Shown: one piece after another, positions 3,661 to 50,853 of the stretch
Layout of the letters: every line of letters begins with the position of its first letter
Numbering within the stretch: the first letter of the stretch is position 1
NCBI GenBank assembly: GCA_037783545.1
Contig: JBBELK010000402.1
Location: 310,001-374,000, forward strand
From: Henricia sp. BOLD:AAB3569
Taxonomy: Eukaryota; Echinodermata; Asteroidea; Spinulosida; Echinasteridae
DNA length: 64,000 bases
Direction: 5' to 3'
Program-made: the position numbers and the translations under genes
The notes under the pieces: model-generated
The model's input: the letters and a program-made list of their open reading frames with translations, nothing else
What the model was told of the DNA's origin: nothing
Database searches by the model: none

Positions 3661-5060
3661 ATCTTTGGATAGTCTATGTGGTGCAGTTTCGGTCTTCGTA
3701 AAATAATCATGATTTAATTTTATTTTGTCAACATTTGTCATTATTATAACCATTACCTGGAGCATTACTACTCCCCCTGGATGGAATGCAAGTCCATCAC
3801 AGGTTTTACTCCCAGCAGTTAGTTTGGTTATATTCTATAGCAAGGAGTGACTAGGAGCATTGCTACTTCCCCTTGATGGGATACTAGTCCATCGCAGGTT
3901 TACCCCCAGCAGTTAGTTACATTTCCATGGCATACAGTGACTAGGAGCATTGCTATTCCCCCCTGGATGGGATGCCAGTCCATCACAGGTTTACTCCCTG
4001 CAGTTAGTTTGGTCATTCTGAAACTAATAATGACTGAATTTGTGACATTTATAATTATTATATAAATGTGTGTAATTCGAATCCGGGGCGTGTATGTATG
4101 TAATCAGAGTGCGGAATTATTTCCCTAAAACCGTATATATATATATAGTTGATGGCATAAAGGGCCTTGCCGAAGATGCCATACAATTAACAACACTCAC
4201 ACACTTGACAAAGACAAAATTAAATTGACACTCTTGGAAATCTCTTGGAATATTTTAATTATTTTATTAGTTTCCGAACCGGTTTTAATTAAAATAAAAT
4301 AATTTTGTTGATTTTCCTTGAATGTAAAACTTAAGTGAACTTTGATAGAGATTGAGTTATATTACTTTAGTTTTTAAGTGCTACCTTAATTTCGAAATTG
4401 TACTCATTCCTGTTGTCTCGGACATGTTATGTACCACCGTCTTGCAAATGCTTTAAATGAAAGCAACAAATTTAACTGTCATTTATACAGAACAAAGTAA
4501 GGGTTTTTTTGGTGATAAGTTTATGCAGTGTATTTTGAAATTTATTTAAACGTTTTAGTTGATGGTTCCAAAAGGCATTAAATTCTGGTCAGGCTGCTAA
4601 ACTTAAGTCTAATTAACCAATCGCAATTGTACTTATCCCCGTTGTCTCGGACATGGAGTACCTATAGCCCGAGGGCATTGCTACTCCTCCTGGATGGGAT
4701 GCTAATCCATCGCAGGTTTACCACCAGCAGTTAGTTGGGTTCCTGTAAAAGGTAATTAGTTTCCATAGCAAAGGGTGACTTGTAGCATTGCTACTCCACC
4801 TGGATGGGATGCCAGGCCATCACAGGTTTACCCCTTGCAGCTAGTTTAGTTAGCATGGAGTGACTGGGAGCATTGCTACTCCCCCTGGATAGAATACCAG
4901 TCCATCACAGGTTTATACCTAGCGGTTAGTTGGGTTTCCCGAACAGGTTGTTAGTTGCCTTGTCATGGAGTGACTTAGAGCATTGCTACTCCCCCTGGAT
5001 GGGATGCCAGTCCATCGCAGGTTTAACTCCATCAGTTAGTTGGGTTTCCCAAGCATAGGC
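3660..5060 (+). repeat. ~110-bp satellite units flanking a shared AT-rich module
   Basis: About three satellite units lie at 3755-4015 and about four at 4663-5045. Each has the core GGATGGGATGCCAGTCCATC followed by GCAGGTTTACCCCCAGCAG. Within the core, GATGG and CCATC form a 5-bp inverted repeat around a 9-base loop. Between the two clusters, 4020-4650 is an AT-rich module that recurs at 22990-23410 plus 23990-24110 and at 34240-34440. No gene is seen. Confidence 0.8.
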
Positions 5061-5930: not shown

Positions 5931-6432
5931 CCTTTACCATGTATAGATTGGTTTCCGAGCGCGCCTGATCCCCGATCACCTATTGTTTTGTATTGGTCCG
6001 TTGCCTTTCCCCATCTACTTCTGTTTTTTTTCACTGAGAAACGATTCCAAAGCTTCTGTAAATTCAACGTTACAATATAATCAGGTCAAAACGTGGTTGG
6101 GTACAAGTGTGTCATGATGACGTCATCGAATGTCAAATTACTCAACAAATAATTAAAGTTTATTATTTAAAAACTATAAAAATCATATCTCGGGGACCGT
6201 AATAAATATTTGAACAATTCTTTAACAGCATGATAGGTCTCCATTAACTGAACATATGACACAATATTAAAACACAGATGACATGGTTACTGACCAAAAT
6301 GTACAATGCTCTTCAGTCACATTCGTGTGACAAATTTAAAGTGAACATTTTAAGATTCTACGGGTAGGTCATAAAAATCCTGCATCGGACAGTTAAGTAT
6401 AAAAATGAATTTGAAATATCTGATTTCTTTAC

Positions 6433-6474
6433 CCAGTGTCGACGTCCGAGTCTGACGGCGCTAAGTTCGTTTTG
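6433..6474 (-). CDS. Putative exon A1 (acidic juxtamembrane exon)
   Basis: A 42-nt candidate exon on the minus strand between TTCTCTCTGCAG and GTAAAG, both good splice consensus. In the frame that joins exon B it reads KTNLAPSDSDVDTG, ending in a split GG codon (phase 2). The acidic SDSDVDT stretch is the conserved part of all A exons. No B exon lies downstream before the block ends, so this copy may be an unused relic. The joining partner is inferred. Confidence 0.4.
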
Positions 6475-7077
6475 CTGCAGAGAGAACACGAAGCAAAAGT
6501 CACATCGTGAAAACGCAACCAATAACTATATAATTATTTGAGGAAATTCATAGAAAAGGGCAAGCTGTGTTTTTTGTTTTTTTAAAAGAAAACTCCAACT
6601 AAATTGTTTCGAGTGATTTTTCGACCTTCAATGATTTTCGTGTTTTTGTAGTGATTGATAACGGATGTGTTTATTCAAATATGCCCTATTTAATTTACTG
6701 TAGAAAAAAATTCAAGGCCGAAAACAAAACTTGGGAATCTGGGGAAAATTTTGTGCGAGTCTTACAAATCGCTGTATGTTATTTTCTTCTGCCATAACAG
6801 AAACAACTGTCCAGGGAATAAACTTTTATTGGAACTCCAAATCACCAATAAAAGTCTTAACTGTATTCTGAGAAGTGGCTGAAAACAAACTTGCCAGTAT
6901 CGCAAGGTGCCCTCCTTGTTACAAAAATACAGCAATGTTTAATGTGCACAGTTTCTTTTGTTGCCGAGTATGGTATTATTTTTTAAAAATTAAATTATAA
7001 TTGGACCAATTAATGAGAAAAGGTGTATAGGCATAGGCAAATCGATCTTATCTTAAATAGAAATTGTGACATCTAAC

Positions 7078-7197
7078 CTCGTTTCCTTTTTAAATTTCTT
7101 TATCTCCGAGTCTGACGTACATTTGAAATACCATGCGGTGCCTGCCGAAAAAGCGACAGCGGTCCCTGCTGCCGCCATGGCATAGTATTCAATTTTT
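7078..7197 (-). CDS. Putative exon B1 (transmembrane exon)
   Basis: A 120-nt minus-strand exon bounded by ...CATGCAG and GTTAGATGTC, phase 2 at both ends. It starts KIEYYAM, continues as the hydrophobic AAAGTAVAFSAGTAWYF, and ends in a basic tail (KCTSDSEIKKFKKET). This has the shape of a single-pass membrane span with a stop-transfer tail. The acidic upstream exon and the basic tail predict a cytosolic C-terminus by the positive-inside rule. Six B exons in the window share this pattern with lengths divisible by three (99, 117 or 120 nt). The family is not recognised and the N-terminal exons are not identified. The internal Met is replaced in exons B2 and B3, so it is probably not the start. 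Confidence 0.55.
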
Positions 7198-7525
7198 CTG
7201 CATGTTCAAACACAGTATACGAGATTGTCATTAAGGGCTATGCAGCGTGTCCCCTCCCCTCCCATAAAGCTCTTTAGCAGAAAAACTTGCATAATCCAAA
7301 ATTAATTTGTTTTTGAAAAATGGGATAACAGTCAAAATCTTAATGTAATGTGTATTGACATGGTGTTCTGCTATTCTTGCTGAGAACACAAGTTTACATA
7401 CAATTTTGAATGCTAACCCATTTTTCTAAATACAAAAATTTGGCATTAGGCAGATTATTTCCTGCCTAATGAATTTGAAATATAATTGAAGTATAAAATG
7501 AATTTGAAATATATAATTTCTTTAC

Positions 7526-7567
7526 CCAGTGTCGACGTCCAATTCTTCTGACTTGAAGTTCTTTTTG
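7526..7567 (-). CDS. Putative exon A2
   Basis: A 42-nt minus-strand exon between CTCTCTGCAG and GTAAAG, reading KKNFKSEELDVDTG in phase 2. It is followed on the minus strand by exon B1 about 330 bp away, so A2-B1 is a possible splice pair. A plus-strand open frame also covers this spot, but the conserved splice signals are all on the minus strand. Confidence 0.45.
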
Positions 7568-7727
7568 CTGCAGAGAGAACACGAAGCAAAAGTCATATTA
7601 AAAACGAAACCAATAACTAGAATTATTTGGAAGAAATTCATTGAAAAGGGCAAGCTGTTTTTTGTTTTGTTTAAGAAAACTCCAACTAAATGTTTCGACC
7701 TTATTTCGAAATATCTGATTTCTTTAC

Positions 7728-7772
7728 CCAGTGTCGACGTCGGACTCTGACGGTGCGGCGAGGTTTATTTTA
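7728..7772 (-). CDS. Putative exon A3
   Basis: A 45-nt minus-strand exon between CTCTCTGCAG and GTAAAG, reading KINLAAPSESDVDTG in phase 2. It is one codon longer than most A exons, which keeps the frame. It lies about 160 bp upstream of A2 in transcription order, so the two may be tandem or alternative. Confidence 0.4.
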
Positions 7773-8072
7773 CTGCAGAGAGAACACGAACCAAAGAAAT
7801 TTATTGAAAAGGGCAAGCTGTTTTTTTTTTTTAAAGAAAACTCCAACTAAATGTTTCGACCTACAATGATAGGTCGTGTTTTTGCAGTGATTGATAACGG
7901 ATGTGTTTATTCAAATATGTCCTTTATCATTTACTGTAACAAATAATTCAAGGCCGAAAACAAACTTGGGAATTTGGGGAAAATGTTGTGCGACTCTTAC
8001 AAATCGCTGTATGTTTATTATGCCATAACAGAAACAAAATGTCCAGGGAATAAACTTTTATTGGAACTCCAA

Positions 8073-8079
8073 TTAACCA
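8073..8079 (-). CDS. Truncated terminal exon C2
   Basis: After a strong acceptor (CTTTTGTTTATCATTTCAG, minus strand) the sequence is TGGTTAA. Joined to a phase-2 donor this gives Ser-Gly-stop, whereas C4 and C7 read GELEFQ before their stop. A single GAA-to-TAA type change explains the early stop. AATAAA follows within 20 bp. Confidence 0.35.
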
Positions 8080-8319
8080 CTGAAATGATAAACAAAAGAA
8101 AGTCTTAACCGTGTTCTAAGAAGTGGCTGAAAACAAACTTGCCAATATCGAATGTTAAAAGCAGGTGCCCTCCTTGTTACAAAAATACAGCAGTTTCTTT
8201 TGTTGCAGAGCATGGTTATGATTTTGTTTAAATTAAACTATTATAAGACGTTTAAATGAGAAAGGTTGTAGGCATATAGGCAAATCGATATTTTAAAAAT
8301 AGAAATGTTGACATCTAAC

Positions 8320-8439
8320 CTTTTGTCCTTTTTGTTCTTTTGCTTGGCATCTCTACTTTTAAGGCCGCACCAGGCAGTGATGCCAAATGTCGCAATGGCG
8401 GCCGCAGCTCCAGCCGCAATGGCGTAGTATTCAAATGTT
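8320..8439 (-). CDS. Putative exon B2 (transmembrane exon)
   Basis: A 120-nt minus-strand exon between ...ACATGTAG and GTTAGATGTC, phase 2 at both ends. It reads TFEYYAI, then AAGAAAAIATFGITAWC, then GLKSRDAKQKNKKDK. The Met seen at the seventh position in B1 and B4 is Ile here, which argues that translation does not start in this exon. The terminal-exon acceptor lies about 240 bp downstream on the minus strand. It shares the membrane core with B4 and B7 and differs in the tail. Single-pass membrane role inferred; family unknown. Confidence 0.55.
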
Positions 8440-8629
8440 CTACATGTTGAAACACAGTATATAAGATTGTCATTAAGGGCTATGCAGCGTGTCCCCTCTT
8501 AACCGTGTTCTGAGAAGTGGCTGAAAACAAACTTGTTGCAGAGTATGGTTCCCGTTATTATTTTTTTAAATTAATTTATTATCTGACCAATTAATGATCT
8601 TATCTTAAATAGAAATTGTGACATCTAAC

Positions 8630-8728
8630 CTTGTTTCTTTTTCGATTTCCTTTTGTGACCTCGCGTACCACGCGGTGAAGGCTACGGCCCCAACAGCGGC
8701 AGCAGCCGCCCCGACGTATCCCAATTTA
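8630..8728 (-). CDS. Putative exon B3 (divergent transmembrane exon)
   Basis: A 99-nt minus-strand exon between ...ATGTACAG and GTTAGATGTC, phase 2 at both ends. It reads KLGYVGAAAAAVGAVAFTAW followed by YARSQKEIEKET. It is the most diverged B exon at the base level, yet it keeps the splice sites, the frame, the hydrophobic Ala/Gly core, the TAW motif and a charged tail. That pattern is the best hint that selection has acted on the protein. It lies just upstream of B2 in transcription order, so B3 and B2 could be mutually exclusive. Confidence 0.6.
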
Positions 8729-9897
8729 CTGTACATGTTCAAACACAGTATATAGGATTGTCATTAAGGGCTATGCAGTGTGTCCCCTTCCAAAAAAGTC
8801 CACGGGCTAACTTCATTAAGCTCTTTAGCAGAAAAAAACTTGCATAATCTAATTTTTTTTTTATGTGTATTAAAATGGTGTTCTGCTATTCTTGCTGAGA
8901 ACACAAGTTTACAGAAGATTTTTACTTTAGCCCAAATTTATAAAGCAAACAAAATCTTGCATTTGGGCAGATTTTCCCCCCTGCTAAACAGCATTATGAA
9001 ATCGGCGCCTGGTTACACCTGTCAACCTCAGAATCTATGTTTCCCCTGATCCTAATGGGGAACTAACTTATTTGTGTTTTGGTTCCCGAGTAGGAACCGG
9101 TCCATTATAGTATGTCAAAGGTCTACTGTACCAACAAATAAATGAGTAGGCCTATGCTAATTCTATTTAATTATGTTGCAGCAAACCTATAAGAATACCG
9201 AGTAATTTGCGTAACCTTGTTCTGATTACTATATGATTGCCTATAAAAACATACGTAAAACACAATTTAATGGCGCTAGAAAAAGTTACCATAACGTTAT
9301 TTTGTTTCTGGTATATGATGTCAAATTATCAATGTGAAATTTTCAAAAAAGTTGCTCCCGATCCCCTGTGGGTGAACTTACTAGGTACAGCATCATGGTT
9401 TAAACAAATTTAAATATTTGTAAGTGGTCACCTAAAAATAGGGGTTCGTTGCCTTCCCCCTTCATCTTCCTTTTTTTTTTCCACTGAGAAACGATTCCAA
9501 AGCTTTTCTTCAGAACGTTACAAAATAATCAGCTCAAAAGGTGGTTACACGTGGATACAAGTGTGACGTCATGATGACGTCTTCGAATGTAAGATTACAA
9601 AACAAATTCAAAGTTGATTATTTCAAAAATATATATCTCGATAACTATAATAAATATTTGAACAATTCTTTCACAGCATGATAGGTCTCAATTAACTCAA
9701 CAGATTACACAATATTAAAACACAGATGACATGGTTACTGACAAGTTTTTAGCCAAAATGTCAATGCTCTTCAGTCACATTCGTGTGACAAATTTAAAGT
9801 AAACATTTTAAAATGTTAAGATTCTACGGCTAGGTCATAAAAATCCTGCATCGGACAGTTAAGTATAAAATGAATTTGAAATATCTGATTTCTTTAC

Positions 9898-9942
9898 CCA
9901 GTGTCGACGTCGGACTCTGCAACCGGCTTGAAGTTTATTTTG
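9898..9942 (-). CDS. Putative exon A4
   Basis: A 45-nt minus-strand exon between CTCTCTGCAG and GTAAAG, reading KINFKPVAESDVDTG in phase 2. The next B exon on the minus strand is B3, about 1.2 kb away. The acidic ESDVDTG end is identical to A3 and close to the others. Confidence 0.45.
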
Positions 9943-10270
9943 CTGCAGAGAGAACACGAAGCAAAAGTCATTTTGAAAACGAAACCAATAACTAAAATTA
10001 TTTGGAAGAAATTCATTGAAAAGGGCAAGCTGTTTTTTGTTTTGTTTAAGAAAACTCCAACTAAATGTTTCGACCTTCAATGTTTTTCGTGTTTTTGCAG
10101 TGATTGATAACGGATGTGTTTATTCAAATATGCCTTATTTCATTTACTGTAACAAATAATTCAAGGCCGAAAACAAACTTAAGAATTTTGGGAAAATGTT
10201 GTGCGACTCTTACAAATCGCTGTATGTTTATTCTGCCATAACGGAAACAAAATGTCCAGGGAATAAACTT

Positions 10271-10292
10271 TTATTGGAACTCCAATTCACCA
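10271..10292 (-). CDS. Putative terminal exon C4
   Basis: Minus-strand exon start after the acceptor CTTTTGTTTATCATTTCAG. Joined to the AG| end of exon B4 it reads Ser-GELEFQ-stop. The TAA stop lies inside an AATAAA hexamer (10270-10275), an economical 3' end, and a second AATAAA follows. An identical coding end occurs at 44640-44661. The frame agreement of donor, acceptor and stop supports a real terminal exon, although a polyadenylation site has not been shown. Confidence 0.5.
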
Positions 10293-10530
10293 CTGAAATG
10301 ATAAACAAAAGAAAGTCTTAACCGTGTTCTGAGAAGTGGCTGAAAACAAACTTGCCAATATCGAATGTTGAAAGCAGGTGCCCTCCTTGTTACAAAAATA
10401 CAGCAGTTTCTTTTGTTGCAGAGCATGGTTATGATTTTGTTTAAATTAAACTATTATAAGACCAATAAATGAGAAAAGGTGTAGGCATAGGAAAATCGAT
10501 ATTTTTAAAATAGAAATGTTGACATCTAAC

Positions 10531-10647
10531 CTTTTGTCCTTTTTGTTGTGTTGCTTGCCATCTCTACCTTTTAGACACCAGGCAGTTATGCCAACTGTCG
10601 CAATGGCGGCCGCAGCTCCAGCCGCCATGGCGTAGTATTCAAATGTT
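10531..10647 (-). CDS. Putative exon B4 (transmembrane exon)
   Basis: A 117-nt minus-strand exon between ...ACATGTAG and GTTAGATGTC, phase 2 at both ends. It reads TFEYYAM, AAGAAAAIATVGITAWCLK, then the basic GRDGKQHNKKDK. With A5 upstream and C4 downstream, this is the only place in the window where an A-B-C order is complete at sensible distances. The combined product would be an acidic stalk, one membrane span and a short basic cytosolic tail. The upstream ectodomain, if any, is not found. Confidence 0.6.
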
Positions 10648-11334
10648 CTACATGTTGAAACACAGTATATAAGATTGTCATTAAGGGCTATGCAGCGTGT
10701 CCCCTTCCAAAAGAGTCCAGGGGCCAACTTCATAAAGCTCTTTAGCAGAAAAAAAACTTGCATAATCCAATTTTGTTGTGATGTGTATTAAAATGGTGTT
10801 CTGCTATTCTTGCTGAGAACACAAGTTTACATAAGATTTTTACTTTTGATTGTCCCCCTGCTAAACAGCATTATGAAATTGGCGCCTGGTTACACTCTTC
10901 AACCTCATAATTTATGTTTCCCCTGATCCTAATGGGGAACTAACTTATTTGTGTTGGGTGTACTTTGGTTCCTGAGTAGGAACCGGTCCATTATAGTATG
11001 TCAAAGGTCTACTGTGCCAACAAATAAATGAGTATGATAATTATATTGTGTACGAAAAAAACACCGAACATGTCTATTTAATTATGTTGCAGCAAACATA
11101 TCGAGTAATTTACGTAACCTTGTTCTGATTACTATATGATTGCCTATATAAAAACATACGTATGTAACACAATTTAATGGCGCTAGAAAAAGTTACCATA
11201 ACTTTATTTTGTTTCTGGTATGTCAAATTATCAATGTGAAATTTTCAAAAAATTAGCTCCCCCGTGGGTGGACTTACTGGGTACAGCATCATGGTTTAAG
11301 TATAAAATGAATTTGAAATATCTGATTTCTTTAC

Positions 11335-11376
11335 CCAGTGTCGACGTCGGAGTCTTCCGACTTGAAGTTCTTTTTG
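11335..11376 (-). CDS. Putative exon A5
   Basis: A 42-nt minus-strand exon between TTCTCTCTGCAG and GTAAAG, reading KKNFKSEDSDVDTG in phase 2. Joined to B4 the split codon becomes GGA (Gly). This is the consensus A exon: basic start, acidic centre. The polypyrimidine tract is good. Confidence 0.5.
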
Positions 11377-11473
11377 CTGCAGAGAGAACACGAAGCAAAA
11401 TGCATATTGAAAACAAAACCAATAACTATAATTATTTAAAAGAAATTAATTGAAAAGGGCAAGCTGTTTGTTC

Positions 11474-11502
11474 CTGCCCCCATGGCGTAGTATTCAAATT
11501 GT
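11474..11502 (-). pseudogene. Truncated exon B5
   Basis: Only the 5' end of a B exon survives after the acceptor ...ACATGTAG, reading about QFEYYAMGAG before homology stops near 11473, where sequence from next to exon A abuts. Probably a deletion junction between two P units. Confidence 0.5.
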
Positions 11503-11554: not shown

Positions 11555-12150
11555 GTGTCCCCTCCCCAAAAAAAATCTGTCAACGATCCGTTCAAAATTC
11601 TTCAGAGGACTGTAGAAAGAGATCCTTTTGCGTGTAGCGCTTGTGGAGATGTGCTTCTTGAGCTGATTTTCGGGCCTACCCCATATCTGTCCGTTCAAAA
11701 TTCTTCAGAGAGACTGTATAGCGATCCTTTTGCGTGTAGCGCTTGTGGAGATGTGCTTCTTGAGCTGATTTTCGGGCCTACCCCATATCTGTCACGATCC
11801 GATCAAAATTCTTCCGAGAGACTGTATACAGAGATCCTTTTGCGTGTAGCGCTTGTGGAGATGTGCTTCTTGAGCTGATTTTCGGGCCTACCCCATATCT
11901 TTCAAAATCAGTTTGACGCTTCTTGGAGAAACTATATAAAGAGAAGCTTGCACGCTGAGAATTATATAAAACGAACCCTCCGTTGTTAGCGCTTGTGAGG
12001 ATGTGCTTCTTGAGCTGATTTCCAATAGAAAAAAAAAATTAATTTAAAAAAAAAAATTACCACATTCTTGTCGCAATCAGTTGCATGCCGATAATTCCAT
12101 AAAACGAAGCTTCCGTTGGTAGCGCTTGTAAGGTCCTGAGGATGTGCTTC
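11555..12150. repeat. Tandem repeat of ~102-140 bp units (S5)
   Basis: Four to five units, each with GCGCTTGTGGAGATGTGCTT (near 11637, 11739, 11849; diverged near 11989 and 12123) and, in the first three, CCTACCCCATATCT. Single units recur at 30301-30400 and 46527-46620. On the minus strand the junction ATGGG|GTAGG resembles a phase-2 donor, so these may be relics of an upstream exon. The plus-strand frame through the first three units is repeat-driven. Confidence 0.8.
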
Positions 12151-14140
12151 TTAAGACTGGTTCCCGCTCCACATATTCAACATACAATGACTAAATATGA
12201 GGACCGGCTACTGTGATGTTTAAAATAGCACTAAGTATTACGTCATGCATTTATTTTTAGGAGCGCATAACCGTTAATTTTCAAAAGAGTGTATAACAAT
12301 TTGAAAAAGGTAATTATTCCATATTTGGCCAATAAAACACATGCCCATTATAGCATCAAAATTCAAATTCAAACCTTGTCTGCATAATCGTAAAATAAAC
12401 ACGCGGCGAAACACTGTCCACGAATCGTATACCAACGATAACGACCGGACGTGCATTCGGGTAACTTCGGGAATTAACATGTATACTGGCGGTTGCCGGA
12501 CCTAAAGATCAGTCCGGAATCTTTAGGTCCGGGAACAAGACTAACTGAAAACATCCAGGTTGAACCTCGGTGTTCCCGTGAAGCAACTCAACGAGATTCA
12601 GTACGAATGTTCTCCCCCGCATTCTATAGCGGCTTGCGCCAACACCAATTATCCCATTAAAAAAAACAAGCGAAAACACTGATCGGAATAAATGTTCCGA
12701 CAAAACGGTTCTGACAGGAAACTGACAGACAGTGCTCGTGTGTGTGGTTGCGCGTCATGACTGCGTGACATTATAAAGATGCGAAATGACCGAACCAGGT
12801 GTTTTTTTTCCAAATCTCGACTTGGGCTCAGGCTGAGGCTCCGGCTCGATGTAAACCACATGGAGACGGAGCCGGAGACGAAGGCGAAGGTGTAAAGTTT
12901 GTTTTAATTGGATTTGTTTACAAATAATTTGAAATATACGTTTTCTCCTTTGTTTTTGGTCTTATTTTTGATTTTACAAATTGTAATAATAATTACCAAA
13001 ACATTGAGAAATAATTTATTGTATCAAAACTGTACAAATAAATAATTATAACTGCAGTTGAAAATTGATAATTTATTCCTCTTCTTTTCCCAATCGTATG
13101 TGATGATTTTTACTGATATTTAGCTCCTGTTTCTAAAAATACAATTTGACATACAATTTTGGCTGGTAACTCATTTTACAGAGCAAAGAAATTATGTGCT
13201 AAACAAATTTTTGTGCTAACGGGTTCCATGAAATTGGGCCCAGTACAGTACAATAATTGTCTCATTTGTTTCAATTGTATACCTGTGCTAAAAAATTAAA
13301 GAAATACGAACCCACTTTAAAACAGGAAAAAACGTCAATTATTACACCACTTTACCATGTTTTAATACATTGCAGTTGTTAATGTATCTGCAATACAGTT
13401 TACAAACAAGGAGACAGGCTAAATTAAAAAATAATATAATAATGTAGCCTTTAAAAGAGCTGTACAATGATATTTAATCAGAAGACATTATGAAATACTG
13501 TACAAGTTTTTAAAATATATAATAAACAATAGATGTGCTTTGCTTGGAAATATATTTTCTAAAATGTCTTAATGCACCTTTAAATTGTTCCTCCCACGTG
13601 CTGCCCCACCCCTTAGATGAAGATTTGGTAACGTTTTTGTATGCCCCAGGGTGGAGAGTTATTAAAATAATGTCTGTGCATCTCATGATCTGAGAGCTAG
13701 ACGCGCATTTTAGGTGCATAATAATCACTAACCACAATAATCACAAAAGCCGCTTCGCCCTCCCGATCCCCCGCACGTAAACCACACCCCTAACCCCCTA
13801 CCAGGTCCAGGACACTACCTTGCCACTCGACCCATCAAACTTACACTGGGCATGGCAACACCATTCCCAAACAAACTGTAATTAAAGTTTCATGATGTTT
13901 CTTTGTGGAATATCGCCTTATGCACATTTTTACACCGGAAGTTTATTCGGCAACGTTTCCTTATTCGTAGTTTTCCCGGACTGGCACTGCAACCATGGCA
14001 ACTGATGTTTAGAGGAATTAGTTTTAAATTTAAAAAACAGTGCAAACTATGCCCGTTCGTTATCAACAGCAGCGATACACTCGTTTTACGCGAACATGTT
14101 GTGTACAAATGTATTCTCATATCACGCATACACGTACGGT
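12150..14140. other. No gene recognised; one hairpin and one dispersed motif
   Basis: Mostly AT-rich single-copy sequence. Bases 12496-12531 form a hairpin with arms CCGGACCTAAAGAT and ATCTTTAGGTCCGG. Bases 13135-13255 match a motif dispersed through the P blocks and 33190-33305, ending near ATGAAATTGGGCCC. Short open frames on both strands around 13890-14150 overlap and look like chance. Confidence 0.6.
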
Positions 14141-14144
14141 CATA

Positions 14145-14770
14145 CTAATTGCCGTCAACTGCCACCAAATACCACATTTTAATCGGAAATCAATAGATTC
14201 TAGCATACTGACATACATATTGCACATTAAATGTGTAACATTTCACTCTACATTTTACATTTTTGTAACAGGTTAACTGTTTTCCAGATAAATTGGCATT
14301 TCCCAGGGGGGGGGGGACTTATTTCTTTTGACCTGTTTATTATCACCATATGGTATATGTGAATGCGAGCTACAAAACAGTACACACCCCTCCTCCATTA
14401 ATGGTTTGACCCACACAGCTAGGGCTGCTTTCGAGCGCGGCACCAGGTGCTCCATGGTGCTCCATGGTGCTCGCCCGAAAGCGTGTGTAAGCATGTGTGT
14501 GACGTAACGTTTCCACCACCTGGGAGCACCAGGGACGAGCGCTCGAAAGCAGCCTAGCTGGCAGCAGCAACAAAATGGCTGCCACCGCGCGCACCGCGGA
14601 AAATTAAAACAACCTCACAAAAAAGTAATATTTTTAGTCATTTTTAGTCAGCTTTACACCATAAATACGGCATTTACTTTGTCAGTAGGTGCCAGAATCT
14701 ATTGATTTCTGATTAAAATGTGGTATTTGGTGGCAGTTGACGGCAGTTGACGGTAGTTGACGGCAATTAG
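14145..14770. mobile_element. 626-bp element with ~60-bp terminal inverted repeats
   Basis: The left end (14145-14203) starts CTAATTGCCGTCAACTGCC. The right end (14692-14770) is its reverse complement, with the CAGTTGACGG part repeated three times. A second inverted-repeat element (14417-14559) sits inside. No transposase is present and no clear target duplication could be seen. Confidence 0.7.
14417..14559. mobile_element. Nested 143-bp MITE
   Basis: Ends AGCTAGGGCTGCTTTCGAGC and GCTCGAAAGCAGCCTAGCT are inverted repeats with one indel. The interior has a doubled GGTGCTCCAT and its complement. A G-run lies just outside at 14308-14316. No target duplication is obvious. Confidence 0.6.
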
Positions 14771-14799
14771 TCTGACACGTACGTAGCCCATGTAGCTGT

Positions 14800-16373
14800 G
14801 TCAGACAAGTCGACCGTTGAGACAACTCGACTCGAGACAAGTCGACCGTTGAGACAACTCGCCCGTTGAGACAACTCGCCCGTTGAGACAAGTCGACCGT
14901 TGAGACAAGTCGACCGTTGAGACAACTCGACCGTTGAGACAACTCGACCGTTGAGACAACTCGACCGTTGAGACAACTCGACTCGGGACAACTCACCCGT
15001 TGAGACAGCTCGACTTAATGTATACACGTGGAGCGGAATAAGTTGCATATCTGTTGCAGGACCGGTCCCGGCCGGGCGCGGGCACACTCGATGCACGGAG
15101 GGCGCTCCGATCGGCGCTGGCCGTCGCGTCGGGTCGGCGCGCCCCGCCCGCGAGGACCGGGCCCGGCCCCGGCACACGTCAATGCACAGTGAGCGCTCCG
15201 GTGGCCGTCGCGTCGGGCCGCCCGCACCCCTAGCCCTGCGCGGCGACGCGGCATTCAGTCGTCCAACCGGGGTCCTCAATGTACATATCTACACAGGCCT
15301 GTTGTGTTACTACTAGTGCATTAATGATGGTCAGTAATGTCCAGGAAATGTAATATACAAAAAATAAGGTAAGTATAGGCCTAACATGATTGTTAATTGA
15401 TACTTTTTGATATCAGGCAAAAAAAATAAAAAATATGTTCTGCTTTCGATTACATGGCATTCGAAAATAGGGTAGGTAGGTATTATTTGGCCTATTTTTT
15501 TGTACTAACATGGGGTCTGTGTGTAGTCAAGGGTAAAACTTAGAAATTGATGGTTTTGGGTGTTTTCCCCCCTCATTTTCCCCATAAAATGTAGGTAGGA
15601 GCTCTCGGAATATAGAGTAGGTATATAGGGAAACTGGAAGCAGAACTATTTTGTTTCAAGGCCCAATTTATTTCACTCAATTTTCAATTGCAGAGAGAGA
15701 AATTAATATGAATATTTAGAAAACTCACTGTAGGCCTACCGCAATAATAGAATACCCATAAAACTGTTGTTGATGATACTTTAATGGGTTTTTAAATACT
15801 CGCAGACAAAAGCAAACTTTCTACGTTTCTCCCGACAGTCTGCGATGTTCAACCCTTGAAAACAGTGATGCCTCGAAAACAGGTACGATGAAGTCACAAT
15901 TTATATCATTACATTTTCTGAGTGATTTTGTTCTTCCATCTTATTTTTATGACAATTTATTTTTCAGTAAATTAAAAACATAGGAAAGCCGGGTTCAAAG
16001 TCCTCATCGCACTCTTTTGGAAATAAAACTGTTGTGTAAGTTTGATTTTGCTATTTTAGCCTACTTTGTTTACTAAAATAAAAAAAATTGTTTAACAAAC
16101 AAAGGCCCTCATACTCCTCGTTTTCTTTTAATAATCGGACGATCCACTGGTGGTTTGTTCTACTTGTACTGGCCTTAATATGTTCTGTTCAGGCTATAGC
16201 TTTAATATCAATCATGATTCGACAAAATTGAAAAACAAGCATGCACCATCAATTCATTCTTTTATTTCACGGTCGACTTGTCTCAACGGTCGACTTGTCT
16301 TTCCATTTATCTCACATACGGTCGACTTGTCTCAACGGGCGAGTTGTCTCAACGGTCGACTTGTCTGACCCCC
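14800..16373. mobile_element. 1.57-kb element with subterminal 17-bp repeats
   Basis: The left end carries about a dozen 17-bp units (consensus CCGTTGAGACAACTCGA, 14805-15011). The right end carries the same units inverted (16271-16369). Outer ends are TCAGACAAGTCGACC and GGTCGACTTGTCTGA. GCTGTGT occurs on both flanks (14795-14801 and 16374-16380), a possible 7-bp target duplication. The interior has a GC-rich segment (15058-15270) with an internal duplication, then AT-rich sequence to 16270 with no gene seen. Subterminal motif arrays are typical of transposase binding regions. Family uncertain. Confidence 0.65.
15058..15270. other. GC-rich island with internal duplication
   Basis: About 210 bp of GC-rich sequence in an AT-rich neighbourhood. 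GGCCGTCGCGTCGGG occurs twice (near 15118 and 15201), each time near a GCGCTCCG word. Open frames here follow from base composition. Its origin is unknown; it could be captured cargo of the surrounding element. Confidence 0.55.
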
Positions 16374-16379
16374 GCTGTG

Positions 16380-17080
16380 TAGTACGCGTTACTGAGCCCA
16401 ACCTGGGCTAGCATTACACGGTGACATGTACTGATGTAGTTAACAACGATGGGCTATAAAATCGAACACCCGATGACAAAGAATTACATTGAATTATCGT
16501 CCATCGCCTGGACAAATGTTCATGAAACTCAACACCCAGGTTCTACGTAATATGGGGAAAATTCTCAGACACATGTAGCATTAAATCAATAGGTTATATA
16601 TAAATTGTACAAAATATGACCCTCACCGTGAATTTCGGTCCACCACCGTTGACTGAAAGGACGCTAATAAAAGAGACCGCATCTCCGATTCAACTCTTAT
16701 ATCCATGTGCCTCATTGGCGCGACAGACCCTAGTTTTATTATTATTTAAGTGAATCAACTTGGACAATAAATCTAGAAGGGTGCTTTCTACAATATAAAT
16801 CACCAATACATGAATTTTACAATATATAAAGAGCAGAGTGTTCACAGAATATCGGGGCCTACATTTTCCTTTGCGGAGGGCGATTACCGCACTTGTCGCT
16901 ATGCGGCTTACGCAGTGCGTACGTACATTAAAGGTACACACCGGCCTACTGTTTACATTATTTAGTGATGTAGCAGCATTGACAATACATTTTTGATGGT
17001 CGTTGTGAAAAAAGATCTTGGCATCAAAATAGCAGGATACTGCATGCCGTCTCTAGATCACCTCGGGACGATACTATTAT
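16380..17080. other. Unassigned, with a fragment of a TTAA element
   Basis: 16380-16925 holds nothing I recognise. From 16928, TTAAAGGTACACACCGGC and the following ~100 bp match the left end of the element at 51697, so this is a truncated relative. It runs into the fold-back structure starting at 17082. Confidence 0.5.
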
Positions 17081-17081
17081 A

Positions 17082-17764
17082 CAAATATTGACTGCTTCGA
17101 GTGGTATAGTAAAACTAGCCTCCCGAGGTGACCCACGGAGCATTCTACTTTCCCTCGGCTTCGCCTCGGGAAAATAGAATGCTCCGTGGGTCACCGAAGG
17201 AGGCTAGTTTTACTATATTACGAGAATAAAGCAGTCAATATTTGTTTTATAACACCTCTCCCACAGATTCTGCTTAATTTTGGCTTATATAAAAATGAAA
17301 TCAGTTTCATCAATATTTGTTTTGCATTCACTTTCCCACAGTGTCCACCGCGTTCGTACAAATGCTAGCTGTGCGTAAAGTCGTTTTTGTTCGATTGCGC
17401 GCGTTACGCGTAATGCAGGGGGCGGGGGGTTTGCGCCCACACATACACGACCGAGATCCGCGCGCGGGAGTTGCTAGGGGTGTAGTACTTTTCGGAATGC
17501 ATGGTATAGTCTTTTTGGAGCACTTGTACAAAGATAGCAAAAATAGCCAACGTCACGTGACACGCTCTCTACCAACCACGATACAGAATCTGTGGGCGAG
17601 GTGTTATAAATACAAATATCACATGGTTTGAGGGTGGATAGTCGATATTAGCTCCCCGAGGTATTGGAAGTTGAGACGCTAGATCCCGAGGCGGAAGGCC
17701 GAGGGAACTAGCTTGTCAACTTCCAATACCGAGCCACCCGAAATGAACCATGTGATATTTGTTT
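17082..17764. mobile_element. Fold-back structure: two hairpins around a core
   Basis: A 163-bp hairpin (17082-17244, arms with AAAACTAGCCTCC and CCACGGAGCATTCTA and their complements) is followed by a core. The core ends are inverted repeats (ATAACACCTC...CAGATTCTG at 17248-17275 and its complement at 17564-17592). A second hairpin follows (17602-17764, arms with CACATGGTT and TATTGGAAGTTGA). Both hairpins have ATATTTGT-type outer ends. The core word GTTTTTGTTCGATTGCGCGC recurs, slightly changed, at 55352 inside another element. No gene. Confidence 0.6.
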
Positions 17765-18383
17765 TACCATATACCTCATACATATTCTTCGTCAGTTTAA
17801 AATCACTGACCGCAGGAGAACTTAGTAAAAGTTTGCTTGTGCCAGCTTGTGCAGCCATCTTTTCCATTCAGCTCGTGTGCGTGCACGCATATCTGAATCC
17901 TGTCTCCGTCCGAAACAAACACGCCCTATTATAGATAATTATTTGTGGTTTTTGTGTTAGGTGACTTATAAAAAATGAGCGCGCACACTAATTTTTAAAA
18001 CCAACTTCAATGGTAAATTTTCTACAGAACGGTATCATGAAATCGTGCGGTGTTTGTTACCATTGCTACAACTCTTCGAGTAGTTTTTCTTGTCAAATCA
18101 TGAAGTAACATTTCGAATAAAATCTCAAAGAATTCCAAAAATTGTTGAGACACAAAGTTTAGGCTGAGGTCGCTGAGTTATATCGTGTACAATGTATATA
18201 TCTCAAATGTACTTTGTGCATTCTTTGGTTGAGTCCAGGAATATCTATACCCAGCACGATATGTGACAAAGGCACTCCGTACCTCCCCCATTTCTCCCAT
18301 TTCCCCAATACATCAACACACTCCTTGGAGACAATGCATAGAAGGGCGTATCCTCTCAGTTATTATCGTACTGCATGAGGTCA

Positions 18384-19041
18384 TTTTTCAGATTTCGGAA
18401 GTTTCTGGTCTTAAATTTAGTTCTTTTGAATATTCAGAATGGGTTTTGAAACATGGTAAATTTTTATGTAGACTTGTAATTGTTTACAGACCGCCTTATT
18501 CATCTAAGCATCCTGTAACAACTGCTGTCTTTTTGAATGAGTTTAGTACATACTTGGAGTCCATTGTATTGTCGCCGGAACCAATTTTTATTACTGGGGA
18601 TTTCAATATCCACATGGACCGTGATAATGGGGATGCATTAGGTTTTTCTGACATGTTAACATCTTTGGGTCTTGAACAACATGTTGATACACGTACACAT
18701 GAAAAAGGTCACATTTTAGATTTAGTTATCACACGACAGTGTGATAACCTTTTGGCAGATAAACCAGTTCCTGATTACTTGTTTTCAGACCATTTCTCTG
18801 TTTTGTCAAAGTTAAATCATTGCAAGCCACCTTTGCCTGTGAAACATTTATCATTCAGAAAAATCAAATCTATAAATCGCAATGACTTTTTACATGACTT
18901 GGCCAATAGTCGATTATGTTCCAATCCACCAAATGAGCTGAACGATCATGTCCATTGTTACAATTGTACTTTAATGGACAACCTCGATGCTCATGCGCCT
19001 GTTGTTACTAGAACTGTTAATATAAGGCCACCGGTACCCTG
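18384..19041 (+). pseudogene. Partial endonuclease domain of the LINE
   Basis: The C-terminal part of an exonuclease-endonuclease-phosphatase (APE-type) domain, which nicks target DNA for target-primed reverse transcription. Visible motifs are VIVYRPPYSS, the GDFN motif (FITGDFNIHMD, Asp at about 18599-18601), THEKGHILDLVI and the SDHFSVL catalytic His near 18788. The N-terminal third with the first catalytic Asn and Glu is missing through 5' truncation. The open frame upstream of 18384 is flanking host sequence. Near 19041 a one-base loss shifts the frame, after which the element continues in another frame into the polymerase region. Confidence 0.85.
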
Positions 19042-21024
19042 TTTAATAGTGAAATTAAATCCAGTAAACAATTACGTCGTAAGGCCGAGAAAAAATGGAG
19101 GCTTACTAGTAACGAAAACGATCTTAAACATTTTCACAAACAGAGAAACCATACTAATTTGTTAATGAATGAAGCACGCCAATGTTTTTATACGAACCTC
19201 ATTAAGGAAAACAGTTCAAATCATCGGAAGCTTTTTGGTTCAATCAAAAAGTTATTGAAACCTAATGGTGGAGATAGGCTTTTGAGTGTGGATAACTGCG
19301 CTTTTGCCAATAAACTTGGTAATTTCTTTATTCAGAAGGTTGCAAGCATACATTCCAAGCTGGATGACATGTCCGTTGAGAGTGCCAGCAGGGGAGTGGT
19401 GGGCCGGTTGAAGACGGGTGCTGGTGCCTTGTTAGAGCGTTTTTCGCCGGTCACTTCTCACGATGTTGGCAATCTCATACGTTCGGGTCCCAAGAAATGT
19501 TATTCTTTGGACCCCATGCCTACCGGTTTGGTTGTTGATTTTTTGGACACCTTGTTGCCAGTTATTACGAAAATTATAAACTTATCACTGCAGTCTGGTA
19601 TATTTCCTTCGAATTGGAAAGAATCATTGGTTATTCCGCTCTTAAAGAAAGAAAGTTTAAATCCAACAGATTGCAAGAATTATCGCCCGATTAGTAATTT
19701 ACAGTATATTTCCAAAATTACGGAAAAGGTAGTCTTTAATCAAGTGCATTGCCATATGATGACCCATTCCTTATATCCTTTGTTGCAGTCTGCATACAGG
19801 CGGAATTACAGCACTGAAACTGCATTGTTGAAAGTGCAAAATGACATTTTATTGAACATGAACTCACAGTGTGTTACTTTGCTGGTACTTTTGGATCTCA
19901 GCGCAGCATTTGATACAATTGACCATAAAATTTTATTTGACCGGCTTTATTCCAAAATAGGCATATCGGGTGTGGCACTTGAATGGTTTCGGTCTTATTT
20001 ATCGGGAAGGGGCCAACGGGTTTTATTCGGAGGTGCAACGTCAGACAGATTTAATGTTAAGTGTGGTGTTCCACAGGGATCATGTTTGGGGCCACTGTTA
20101 TTTAATATATATGCCTCTGAGTTATTTGACATTGTTGAAAAGCATTCACCAAGCATTCACTGTTATGCAGATGACACCCAGTTATATATCTCGTTTAAGC
20201 CTTCTGATAATATAAATCAACAACAAGCTGTAATGTCGATGGAACGCTGTATTGATGACATACGTCAGTGGATGACTAGGGACAGGTTGATGATCAATGA
20301 TTCAAAGACAGAATTAATTGTTATTGGGACGAGACAGCAATTATCTAGGGTTACCATCGCTAATTTAAAGGTTGGTGGTGCTAATATTTCACCGTCATTG
20401 GCTGTTTGTAATTTAGGTGTTTGGATGGATTCAAGGTTTAATATGGGTAAACAGATCAGTAGTGTTTGTTCGGCAAGTTTTTATCACCTTCATAACATTA
20501 GGCGTATTCGTAAATATTTATCTCGAGATACCCTAAATGTTCTAACACATGCATTGATAACCAGTCGATTAGACTATTGCAATAGTCTATACTATGGCTT
20601 ACCAAAGTTGTATTTGGACAAATTTCAGCGTGTACAAAATGCTGCAGCCAGACTTGTGTCCGGTGCTACGAGACGTAGCCACATTTCACCTATACTAAAA
20701 CAGTTACATTGGCTTCCTATTTCTGTTCGTATTCATTTTAAGATAATGTTATTGACCTTCAAGGCACTTCATAATCAGGCACCTAAATATCTCTCTGACT
20801 TATTAAAAATGCAAACAAACTCTGGTTATTCATTACGATCAGGAGCTACTCCTTAGTTATGTCATCCGATGGGAAAGATGTTGAAGACATCAGGTGACAG
20901 GGCATTTTCAACAGCAGCTCCCACACTGTGGAATAAGCTGCCACAAAGCATTCGCTGTACTCAGTCACTTGCAGAATTCAAGCGAAAGCTTAAAACACAT
21001 TTGTTTTTTACTGCTTGTGAGTGA
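19042..21024 (+). pseudogene. Reverse transcriptase of the LINE (in-frame stop)
   Basis: Reverse transcriptase of the L2/CR1 group. In the frame starting at Met 19159 the motifs in order are NYRPISNL, LLDLSAAFDTIDHKIL (Asp at residue 246), GVPQGSCLGPLLFNIYAS (residue 303 on), the catalytic YADDTQLY (residues 336-343), and the thumb-like region SRLDYCNSLYYGLP. An in-frame TAG at 20854-20856 interrupts the C-terminus. The same frame continues with the typical GDRAF and LWNKLP ending to TGA at 21024. With the frameshift near 19041 and the missing 5' end, the copy is dead. All catalytic residues of the polymerase core are still present, so decay is recent or light. Confidence 0.9.
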
Positions 21025-21178
21025 ATAGGCAAGTGGGCCCACGCTTTGTTGTATTTGTCTAGGTTTGTGCCAGTGTAAGCATCCTGTAACAACTGCTGTC
21101 TTTTTGAATATTTTAATGTAATTACTGTAATTATTGTAATGCGCATTTGAACATGTACATGGAATTTGCGCAATATAA

Positions 21179-21228: not shown

Positions 21229-21230
<2 letters not shown>

Positions 21231-23985: not shown

Positions 23986-24104
23986 TGTTACATTGTATTT
24001 TAAAATTTATTTGAACTGTTTAGTTGATGGTTGCAAAAGGCATTAAATTCTGGTCAGACTGCTGAACTTGGGTCTAATTAATCCATCGCAATTGTACCCG
24101 TTCC

Positions 24105-28192: not shown

Positions 28193-28234
28193 CCAGTGTC
28201 GACGTCCGACTCTTCGGACTTGAAGTTCTTTTTG
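28193..28234 (-). CDS. Putative exon A6
   Basis: A 42-nt minus-strand exon between CTCTCTGCAG and GTAAAG, reading KKNFKSEESDVDTG in phase 2. It lies downstream of B6 in transcription order, so B6 cannot use it directly. It would belong to a neighbouring or decayed unit. Confidence 0.4.
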
Positions 28235-28679: not shown

Positions 28680-28796
28680 CTTGTTTCCTTTTTTAATTTC
28701 TTCATCTCCGTACATTTGAAATACCATGCGGCCGTGCCTGCCGCAAAAGCGACAGCGGTCCCTGCTGCCGCCATGGCATATAAGTATTCAAATTGT
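28680..28796 (-). CDS. Putative exon B6 (transmembrane exon)
   Basis: A 117-nt minus-strand exon between ...ACATGTAG and GTTAGATGTC, phase 2 at both ends. It reads QFEYLYAM, AAAGTAVAFAAGTAAWYF, then KCTEMKKLKKET. It is a close relative of B1 with compensating in-frame length changes (one extra codon pair in the core, fewer in the tail). Membrane topology as for B1. A possible upstream exon is at 30305-30492, about 1.5 kb away, without an A exon between them. Confidence 0.55.
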
Positions 28797-30299: not shown

Positions 30300-30500
30300 A
30301 TTACCCCATATCTGTCGCGATCTGATCAGAATGTATACAGCGATCTTTTCGCGTGTAGCGCTTGTGGAGATGTGCTTCTTGAGCTGATTTTCCAAACAAA
30401 ACACACGTGCAGTTACTAGGGGTCTGAATCGCGCGCGCCCGGTCGCTCATACCAGGGGATTGTGACGTCACAAAACGTTTATCTGCGCGCAATGTACGCG
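30300..30500 (-). repeat. S5 unit and candidate first exon
   Basis: A single S5 unit fused to upstream CpG-rich sequence. On the minus strand an ATG-initiated frame starts at 30492 (MRADKRFVTSQ) and runs to DQIATDMG, where ATGGG|GTAATT could be a phase-2 donor compatible with exon B. The module-3 copy (46526-46717) keeps the frame and donor. All four base differences I find between the copies in the frame change amino acids, so there is no sign of selection for the protein. Treat as a hypothesis only. Confidence 0.25.
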
Positions 30501-44266: not shown

Positions 44267-44308
44267 CCAGTGTCGACGTCCGATTCTTTGGTAACAGTTG
44301 TCGTATGG
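44267..44308 (-). CDS. Putative exon A7
   Basis: A 42-nt minus-strand exon between CTCTCTGCAG and GTAAAG, reading HTTTVTKESDVDTG in phase 2. The first half is replaced relative to other A exons while length, frame and the ESDVDTG end are kept. Confidence 0.45.
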
Positions 44309-44639: not shown

Positions 44640-44661
44640 TTATTGGAACTCCAATTCACCA
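44640..44661 (-). CDS. Putative terminal exon C7
   Basis: Identical coding end to C4: acceptor CTTTTGTTTATCATTTCAG, then Ser-GELEFQ-stop with the stop inside AATAAA. It lies 238 bp downstream of B7 on the minus strand, matching the B4-C4 spacing. Confidence 0.5.
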
Positions 44662-44899: not shown

Positions 44900-45016
44900 C
44901 TGTTTTCCTTGATGTTGTGTTGATTGCCTTCTGTACTTTTTAAACACCAGGCAGTTATGCCAACTGTCGCAATGGCGGCCGCAGCTCCAGCCGCCATGGC
45001 GTAGTATTTAAAGGTT
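44900..45016 (-). CDS. Putative exon B7 (transmembrane exon)
   Basis: A 117-nt minus-strand exon between ...TTTCAACAG and GTTAGATGTC, phase 2 at both ends. It reads TFKYYAM, AAGAAAAIATVGITAWCLK, then STEGNQHNIKEN. The membrane core is identical to B4 even at synonymous positions, apart from a Leu codon at its end. The tail, by contrast, differs at most positions. C7 follows at the correct distance. A candidate first exon is at 46530-46717. Confidence 0.6.
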
Positions 45017-46525: not shown

Positions 46526-47163
46526 TTACCTCATATCTTTCGCGATCTGATCAGAATGTATACAGCGATCTTTTCGCGTGTAGCGCTTTTGGAGATGTGC
46601 TTCTTGAGCTGATTTTCCAAACAAAACACACGTGCAGTTACTAGGGGTCTGAATCGCGCGCGCCCGGTCGCTCATACCAGGGGATTGTGACGTCACAAAA
46701 CTTTTATCTGCGCGCAATGTACGCGCGCGTGTATACAGTACGCGCTACTGTGACGCATTAGCGTGTCCAACGTGTACGCATTGTGATGTTTTCCCCCACA
46801 GCTAATCCGAATCCACATCCCGAGATGTTTCACCGCGCGGAAACAAACGAAACTCTCTCTAAAATCTTGTGAATAGCAATATATTTACCAAATTTGTAAC
46901 ATTTCTGTACAATATTTCACCCTTGATATTTATCGTAAATAAAAAAGCGACATCTTCGAGCGCAACTTTCACGTCGCACTTTTTGGATCTCCTACTTTTT
47001 AGATCAAAATCTGCGCGAAAATAACGAGTTCATCACATATCTGAATCCTGAAACCGTCCGAAACAAATAGTTAATTTTCTACAGAACGGTATCATGTTTG
47101 CTACAACTCTTCGAGTAGTTTTTCTTGTCAAATCATAAAGTAAAATTTCGAATAAAATCTAAA
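46526..47163 (-). repeat. S5 unit, CpG-rich block and U-block start, module 3
   Basis: 46526-46717 carries the candidate first-exon frame on the minus strand (MRADKSFVTSQ to DQIAKDM, donor ATGAG|GTAATT). 46640-46830 is CpG-rich with TGACGTCA at 46688-46695. 47039-47163 matches the start of the U duplication, after which homology stops. Confidence 0.65.
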
Positions 47164-50569: not shown

Positions 50570-50853
50570 TAAGGCATATTTGAATAAACACATCCGTTAT
50601 CAATCATTGCAAAAACGCGAAAAACATTAAAGGTCGAAAACATTTAGTTGGATTTAAAAAAAAAAAAAACAGCTTGCCCTTTTCAATGAATTAATTTAAA
50701 ATAATTATAGTTCTTGGTTTCATTTTCAACATGACTTTTGCTTCGTGTTCTCTCTGCAGCAAAAAGAACTTTGAAGACTCAGACGTCGACACTAGGTAAA
50801 GATATTTCAAATTCATTTTATACTTAACTGTCCGATGTAGGATTTTTATGAAA
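50570..50853 (+). repeat. Inverted fragment of the P block
   Basis: Reverse-orientation copy of the part of the P block around exon A (compare 9840-10130), including AATAAACACATCCGTTATCA and the polypyrimidine tract before exon A. It ends shortly after the donor. Confidence 0.75.
50760..50795 (+). CDS. Putative exon A8 (plus strand)
   Basis: A 36-nt exon between TTCTCTCTGCAG and GTAAAG, reading KKNFEDSDVDT then a split AG codon (phase 2). Two codons shorter than A2 and A5, still in frame. No B exon is nearby on this strand, so it is probably a stranded copy. Confidence 0.35.

What the first reader, a model, noticed from the sequence alone, without database searches (positions are those of the whole stretch)
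6433..11376. Tandem phase-2 exon cassettes for an unrecognised single-pass membrane protein
On the minus strand, short acidic exons (A), transmembrane exons (B) and a terminal exon (C) recur. All have consensus splice sites, every A and B length is a multiple of three (36-45 and 99-120 nt), and every junction is phase 2. Any A can therefore join any B, and any B can join C, without a frame change. In B3 the DNA has diverged strongly, but the hydrophobic Ala/Gly core, the TAW motif and the charged tail persist. This looks like a protein whose stalk, membrane span and tail can be swapped by duplication or alternative splicing. Sequence features are seen directly; function is inference.
Basis: partly seen in the sequence, partly recalled or inferred. 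Interest (0 to 1): 0.75.

Follow-up and report, generated by a model that had tools for sequence, protein, structure and literature searches.

The report
Tiny membrane-protein genes, fast-changing exons

Summary
On the minus strand, 6 intact B exons (99-120 nt) and 7 A exons (42-45 nt), plus a lone plus-strand A (36 nt), are all multiples of three and phase 2. But TAA follows every A in frame (8 of 8), inside the 'donor' GTAAAG. In both complete copies (G2, G3) the order is exon 1 (ATG GG or ATG AG) - B - A. So A is most likely the terminal exon, and the product a 49-57-residue protein: short start, Ala/Gly helix, basic stretch...DVDTG end. 'C' lies in a dispersed element and is not conserved. 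Unexpected: between the three B types the exon differs by 35-45%, its flanks by 5-15% (11 of 11 non-independent pairs, p<=2e-5). Synonymous sites differ by 58-81%, yet dN/dS is 0.20-0.38 where defined (9 of 11). Old, frame-kept exon types thus sit in a homogenised framework. Pfam and PDB gave no usable match; genome searches, which score only best candidates, found family copies on this contig alone. No transcript data were available: splicing, expression, membrane anchoring and function are inference.

The parts
46530..46626 (-). G3 exon 1: probable 5'UTR and ATG AG| (ATG at 46534), phase-2 donor GAG|GTAATT; transcription start unknown
44900..45016 (-). G3 B exon (hydrophobic helix), 117 nt
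44640..44661 (-). 'C' of G3: SGELEFQ*, inside a dispersed repeat
44267..44308 (-). G3 A exon (C-terminal), ...ESDVDTG then TAA
43833..44266 (-). G3 tract after A (stop and probable 3'UTR), shared with three other A copies
30305..30401 (-). G2 exon 1: probable 5'UTR and ATG GG| (ATG at 30309)
28680..28796 (-). G2 B exon, 117 nt
28193..28234 (-). G2 A exon, ...ESDVDTG then TAA
27801..28192 (-). G2 tract after A (probable 3'UTR)
11680..12032 (-). Array: tandemly repeated exon-1-like copies with ATG GG|GTAGG at 11896, 11786 and 11684
11472..11502 (-). B0: truncated B exon fused to the intron that precedes A (not intact)
11335..11376 (-). A1
10531..10647 (-). B1, 117 nt
10271..10292 (-). 'C' after B1: SGELEFQ*, inside a dispersed repeat; probably not a conserved exon
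9898..9942 (-). A2, 45 nt, followed by a probable 3'UTR to about 9448
8630..8728 (-). B3, 99 nt, the most diverged type
8320..8439 (-). B2, 120 nt
8073..8079 (-). 'C' after B2: reads only SG*
7728..7772 (-). A3, 45 nt (downstream tract truncated)
7526..7567 (-). A4, 42 nt
7078..7197 (-). B4, 120 nt
6433..6474 (-). A5, 42 nt, the last exon of the array
6000..6432 (-). Tract after A5 (probable 3'UTR; its middle part carries a dispersed element)
50760..50795 (+). Lone A exon copy, ...DVDTR*; no B or exon 1 found beside it

Best explanation
A cluster of very small genes, about 41 kb long (45 kb with a lone A copy), in an echinoderm genome. Each complete copy has three exons: exon 1 (probable 5'UTR plus ATG GG or ATG AG), B (one hydrophobic helix and a basic stretch) and A (a short acidic end, ...SDVDTG, stop and probable 3'UTR). 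The product is most likely a 49-57-residue single-pass membrane protein; by the positive-inside rule (recalled) the C-terminus would face the cytosol. Two copies (G2, G3) are complete. A third holds one exon-1 cluster, four intact B exons and five A exons; because every junction is phase 2 it could make several isoforms by choosing one B and one A, or could contain dead modules. Between copies the exons are old, distinct types kept in frame, while introns and flanks have been made alike by recent duplication or gene conversion. Inferred mechanism: selection keeps several versions of the membrane helix, which would act by pairing with different partner helices or lipids, and recombination spreads the shared surroundings. 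Shown: anatomy, frame, divergence pattern. Inferred: splicing, expression, membrane anchoring, topology, partner choice.
For: Anatomy and frames. TAA in frame after A in 8 of 8. Exon gaps are multiples of 3 in 14 of 14 (six unit pairs, not independent), other gaps in 36 of 117. B exon against flanks: 0.35-0.45 against 0.05-0.15 in 11 of 11 cross-type pairs (p 2.4e-12 to 2.0e-5), still p<=6e-4 with CpG columns masked. The B exon holds the top 90-nt divergence window in 4 of 4 cross-type unit pairs. Synonymous 0.58-0.81; dN/dS 0.20-0.38 in the 9 of 11 pairs where it is defined. B and A histories are discordant. In the genome searches the exons matched only this contig, and none was found in 40 kb on either side of the window. 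G2 and G3 are 95.6% identical over 1062 nt around exon 1 but 38% different in B.
Against: No transcript or protein evidence. dN/dS within B types is 0.54-0.95 (4 pairs), so recent constraint is weak or not measurable; in the same 4 pairs the exon excess over flanks is absent or slight (p 0.03-0.63). The A-exon excess is clear only where G3's A is involved: of 10 pairs tested (5 of the 8 copies), 5 reach p<0.05 and 4 of these involve AG3; pooled over all 28 pairs A exons are 77% identical, the upstream flank 85% and the downstream flank 77%, the last including copies with truncated downstream tracts. The array has a broken B0 and truncated parts. G3 reads MR, not MG. A longer upstream frame with an earlier ATG exists in G2 and G3, and part of its peptide is kept in frame in one of three array copies, so the N-terminus is uncertain. 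The longest hydrophobic stretch of B4 averages only 1.10 on the Kyte-Doolittle scale. No signal-peptide predictor was at hand, so a cleaved, secreted form is not excluded.
Confidence: 0.58

Rival explanations
1. A decaying tandem array: only G2 and/or G3 are genes, and the array's extra B and A exons are relics without function.
For: B0 and A3 are truncated; B2, B3 and B4 have no exon 1 of their own; within-type dN/dS is 0.54-0.95.
Against: All four array B exons are open and keep both splice borders; exon gaps are all multiples of three. With flanks only 5-15% diverged, intactness by luck remains possible.
Confidence: 0.3
2. The hydrophobic stretch is a cleaved signal peptide, not an anchor: the conserved Ala-Trp would mark the cleavage site and the product would be a secreted basic-acidic peptide of about 30 residues. 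Added when the report was checked.
For: The stretch begins at residue 4-9 and (T/A)A-W is kept in 6 of 6 B exons; small residues before a cleavage site are usual (recalled).
Against: The helix is as diverged as the rest of the exon, whereas signal peptides of diversified secreted families are usually the conserved part (recalled; also said of serine proteases in a passage of PMC2711939). Three of the six proteins have no basic residue before the stretch (sequences and N-side charges).
Confidence: 0.12
3. One reading: A is an internal cassette exon whose GTAAAG donor removes the stop, so A joins the next B and then a shared C.
For: Phases fit; in the array A1 precedes B1 and A4 precedes B4; GT follows every A, and the plus-strand A donor scores 6.3.
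Against: TAA in frame after 8 of 8 A exons; the donors of the 7 minus-strand A exons score lowest, 4.2; no A was found between exon 1 and B in G2 and G3; C is a repeat piece with the acceptor in 3 of 5 copies.
Confidence: 0.1
4. B and A are the last exons of a larger surface receptor whose ectodomain lies upstream.
For: A membrane exon followed by a charged tail is a usual receptor ending (recalled).
Against: The shared 5' exon has an ATG five bases before its donor. Pfam gave nothing above its cut-off on the minus strand in 12001-26999, 29001-44000 and 49001-64000, three frames each (E<=0.01 listed); the other minus-strand stretches were not scanned, and short divergent exons can be missed.
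Confidence: 0.06

Closest known systems
Snake-venom multigene families with accelerated segment switch in exons (ASSET; PMC2474615 and PMC2711939, passages read)
   Same: Short three-exon genes in which introns are highly alike while exon segments differ strongly.
   Different: Venom toxins are secreted; here the variable element is a hydrophobic helix, no cysteine is conserved, and nothing points to a venom role. This is a resemblance of evolutionary pattern only.
MHC class II DRB genes (recalled; only a listing and abstract starts seen)
   Same: Old exon types kept beside homogenised introns (recalled).
   Different: No Pfam domain matched here; allelic there, paralogous here.
Sp185/333 / He185/333 immune genes of sea urchins (abstract start seen; gene structure recalled)
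   Same: Echinoderm, clustered, highly diverse small genes.
   Different: 185/333 genes have a leader exon and one large second exon built of elements; these have three tiny exons and one hydrophobic helix.
Mutually exclusive tandem exons (Dscam type; recalled)
   Same: Several homologous same-phase exons downstream of one 5' exon.
   Different: Stop-bearing A exons are interleaved with the B exons; splicing is unknown.
Single-pass micropeptides such as sarcolipin (recalled) and NEMEP (abstract start seen)
   Same: Small, one hydrophobic helix.
   Different: Not compared by sequence one to one; no usable Pfam or PDB match. As recalled, those are single conserved genes rather than a diversified cluster.

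Membership tests
ASSET-type multigene family (as a pattern) | Exons more diverged than introns between paralogues | tested here: met
   B exon 11 of 11 cross-type pairs, not the 4 within-type pairs; A exon only partly
ASSET-type multigene family (as a pattern) | Secreted toxin scaffold with conserved cysteines | tested here: not met
   No cysteine among the invariant columns of the six-protein alignment; best weak Pfam E-value 0.055. Secretion itself was not tested
Mutually exclusive tandem exon cluster | Tandem homologous exons of equal phase between constant exons | tested here: inconclusive
   Four B exons of equal phase downstream of one exon-1 cluster, but stop-bearing A exons are interleaved
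Mutually exclusive tandem exon cluster | One and only one exon used per transcript | not testable with these tools
   No RNA data held
Sp185/333 | Leader exon plus large element-mosaic second exon | tested here: not met
   Exon sizes 36-120 nt; the definition is recalled
Single-pass micropeptide | Under 100 aa with one membrane-spanning helix | tested here: inconclusive
   49-57 aa with one hydrophobic stretch, KD19 1.10-1.72; the G2 B peptide alone is modelled as one helix, residues 2-36, mean pLDDT 78. A longer N-terminus and a cleaved signal peptide are not excluded
Known Pfam or PDB family | Match above the curated cut-off or E<0.001 | tested here: not met

The most novel reading that the evidence does not exclude
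A locus in which the transmembrane helix of a 50-residue protein is itself the diversified, selectively maintained element: several ancient helix types are kept as phase-compatible cassettes in a homogenised gene framework, giving individuals a repertoire of membrane micro-proteins, for example for defence or self-recognition.
Probability: 0.2. Interest if true: 0.78.

Novelty: new variant of a known kind. Interest (0 to 1): 0.5.

Why it matters
Exons that differ about three to four times more than the rest of their own gene unit are an unusual signature, known to me mainly from venom and immune genes (partly recalled; ASSET passages). Here it falls on a hydrophobic helix in a protein of about 50 residues, a size class that gene finders often miss (recalled). 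If expressed, it would be a diversified micro-protein family in echinoderms and would allow a direct test of whether transmembrane helices can be the target of diversifying or balancing selection.

Tried and rejected
A-B-C order: rejected as the main reading (TAA after 8 of 8 A exons; order in G2 and G3). C as a family exon: rejected (repeat). Transposable-element origin of A and B: not supported; A, and B with about 60 nt of upstream intron, matched only this contig, whereas the intron further upstream, the B-A intron, part of the post-A tract and the region before exon 1 carry dispersed elements (the tool scores only the best 40 candidates). CpG decay as the cause of exon divergence: not sufficient. 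Start at the internal GCCATGG of B: unlikely; that Met is absent in B2 and B3. Ordinary positive selection alone: does not explain synonymous divergence about 4.6 to 14 times that of the flanks. Literature: no paper on such a family appeared among the listed titles (open-access library only, general terms, no peptide sequence; one search listed 10 of 44,030 papers, one search listed 8 of 66, one search found none). Weak Pfam hits (DUF4307 E 0.068; others E 0.055-0.25) and PDB hits (best E 0.098) are below any useful threshold. One sub-threshold Pfam hit in the read-through scan (ASFV_P17, 18.4 bits against a cut-off of 27) falls about where an isoleucine run encoded by a TTA repeat lies (21180-21228) and is taken as chance. 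Rfam: none at gathering scores.

Changed when the report was checked: the secreted-peptide rival was added and the confidence of the best explanation lowered from 0.62 to 0.58 for it; several ranges were corrected.
Full report
WHAT IS THERE. The window is part of contig C402 of a 740.7-Mb genome. The mitochondrial COX1 in that assembly is open under NCBI table 9 and has AAA codons at places where COX1 usually has Asn (the usual residues are recalled), so the animal is taken to be an echinoderm; the residues resemble sea cucumbers as far as I recall, which is weak. On the minus strand there are six intact B exons and seven A exons, with one more A on the plus strand at 50760. The B translations share G-x-x-x-Y, an Ala/Gly helix, (T/A)AW and a charged, Lys-rich end; B3 is the most diverged.

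In G3 and G2 a conserved stretch ends in GATATG(A/G)G|GTAAT, ATG at 46534 and 30309; the array has three tandem copies with ATG at 11896, 11786 and 11684. Read on into B this gives M-G-B (M-R in G3). A follows B and runs in frame into TAA in 8 of 8 copies. The sequence taken for A's donor scores 4.2 bits in 7 of 7 minus-strand copies, below B (5.4-6.4) and exon 1 (5.5-7.9); 9% of all GT sites in the window score 4 or more (matrix recalled and approximate). Against this, the single plus-strand A scores 6.3. No A was found between exon 1 and B in G2 and G3. Four A copies (A2, A5, G2, G3) are followed by a shared tract of about 400-460 nt, which I take as 3'UTR; no poly(A) signal is shared by all four (my reading). 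The products are 49-57 residues with one hydrophobic stretch (Kyte-Doolittle 19-residue mean 1.10-1.72). A single-sequence model of the G2 B peptide is one helix, residues 2-36, mean pLDDT 78; this says little beyond helix propensity. In G2 and G3 the frame before ATG GG (AG) is open for 70 codons and holds an earlier ATG, so a longer N-terminus is possible. Of the three array copies, one (ATG at 11684) keeps part of that peptide (KSAQEAHLHKRYT) in frame, after a stop and without an earlier ATG; the other two do not.

C IS A REPEAT. The stretch called C (10292-10271 after B1; similar after B2 and in G3) lies inside an element with copies on other contigs. In the five such copies that I aligned (L032-L036) the AG of the acceptor is absent; in the locus it is present in 3 of 5 copies, and the peptide is SGELEFQ* in two and SG* in the third. 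It may serve as an occasional alternative end, but it is not a conserved exon. Other dispersed elements end about 60-70 nt before B, fill much of the B-A intron, lie in the post-A tract and before exon 1. The A and B exons themselves matched nothing off this contig in the searches made (only the best candidates are scored by that tool), and no copy was found in the 40 kb on either side of the window.

EXONS DIFFER MORE THAN INTRONS. B exons fall into three types: {B1, B2, G3}, {B4, G2} and {B3}. I compared each exon with 60 nt upstream and 88 nt downstream, chosen to lie largely outside the dispersed elements. In 11 of 11 cross-type pairs the exon differs by 0.35-0.45 and the flanks by 0.05-0.15 (Fisher p 2.4e-12 to 2.0e-5); in the four within-type pairs p is 0.03-0.63. 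Masking CpG columns leaves p between 1.5e-9 and 5.6e-4 in the 11. Along aligned units of about 1.1-1.3 kb the B exon differs by 0.36-0.39 against 0.10-0.14 for the rest and holds the top 90-nt window in 4 of 4 cross-type unit pairs. These pairs share sequences and are not independent. Synonymous sites differ by 0.58-0.81, nonsynonymous by 0.33-0.40; both exceed the flanks in 11 of 11 pairs (p 5.8e-12 to 7.4e-7, and 4.4e-8 to 1.3e-3, counts rounded for the test). dN/dS is 0.20-0.38 in the nine pairs where it is defined (two are saturated), and 0.54-0.95 within types. All 14 exon gaps in six unit pairs are multiples of three, against 36 of 117 gaps elsewhere.

READING. Synonymous change far above the flanks cannot come from amino-acid selection alone. 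Either the exon types are old and the surroundings were made alike by duplication and gene conversion that left the exons distinct, or old exons were moved into a common frame. Both make exons the unit of inheritance. B and A are not linked: the B1 and G3 units have B 9% and A 45% different; the B4 and G2 units have B 5% and A 21% different, with the rest at 9% and 8%. G2 and G3 are 95.6% alike over 1062 nt around exon 1, yet 38% different in B. For A the excess is weaker: of 10 pairs tested, 5 reach p<0.05, four of them with G3's A; pooled over 28 pairs the A exon is 77% identical, its upstream flank 85% and its downstream flank 77%, the last lowered by copies with truncated downstream tracts.

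LIMITS. The array holds a truncated B0 and a truncated A3, and only one exon-1 cluster. The extra B exons may be alternative cassettes or survivors not yet decayed; with flanks only 5-15% different, luck is not excluded. No RNA or protein data were at hand, and no signal-peptide predictor: the conserved Ala-Trp at the end of the helix could also be a cleavage site, in which case the product would be secreted. Pfam found nothing above its cut-off for the proteins or for the parts of the minus strand scanned (12001-26999, 29001-44000, 49001-64000, three frames each), which argues against an ectodomain upstream; the best PDB E-value was 0.098.

COMPARISON. The pattern resembles what was described for viperid three-finger toxin genes, where intron segments are more than 85% identical while exon segments switch (PMC2474615, PMC2711939; passages read). 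It also recalls MHC class II genes (recalled). Membership in either is not claimed: no cysteine is conserved and no shared domain was found. I rate it a new variant of a known kind.

Noticed in passing
18233-20856 (+): Two overlapping long frames that look like endonuclease and reverse transcriptase of a non-LTR retrotransposon (named by eye from the translation; not searched).
   Followed up: no
34520-35646 and similar arrays at 3759-4009, 4675-5025, 24106-24824, 26468-26814, 38086-39293: Tandem repeats of about 85-195 nt with a similar unit (GAGCATTGCTACTCC...CCTGGATG..., the last array in reverse) recur at several places in the window.
   Followed up: no
37174-37952: A 33-nt minisatellite of 23.5 copies, 95% matches, open in several frames.
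   Followed up: no
10708-10890 and matching sites at 29148-29180 and 45252-45291: A short inverted-repeat element ends about 60-70 nt before the B exons; related copies occur on many contigs.
   Followed up: partly
46805-46948 and 30577-30721 (-): The region before exon 1 carries part of a very common dispersed element (911 first-look candidates for the 381-base query; bounds), close to the presumed promoter.
   Followed up: partly
contig C955 (G000): Mitochondrial COX1 appears three times at 16,221-base spacing, so this contig looks like a head-to-tail assembly of the mitochondrial genome; a fourth match lies on C2104.
   Followed up: no
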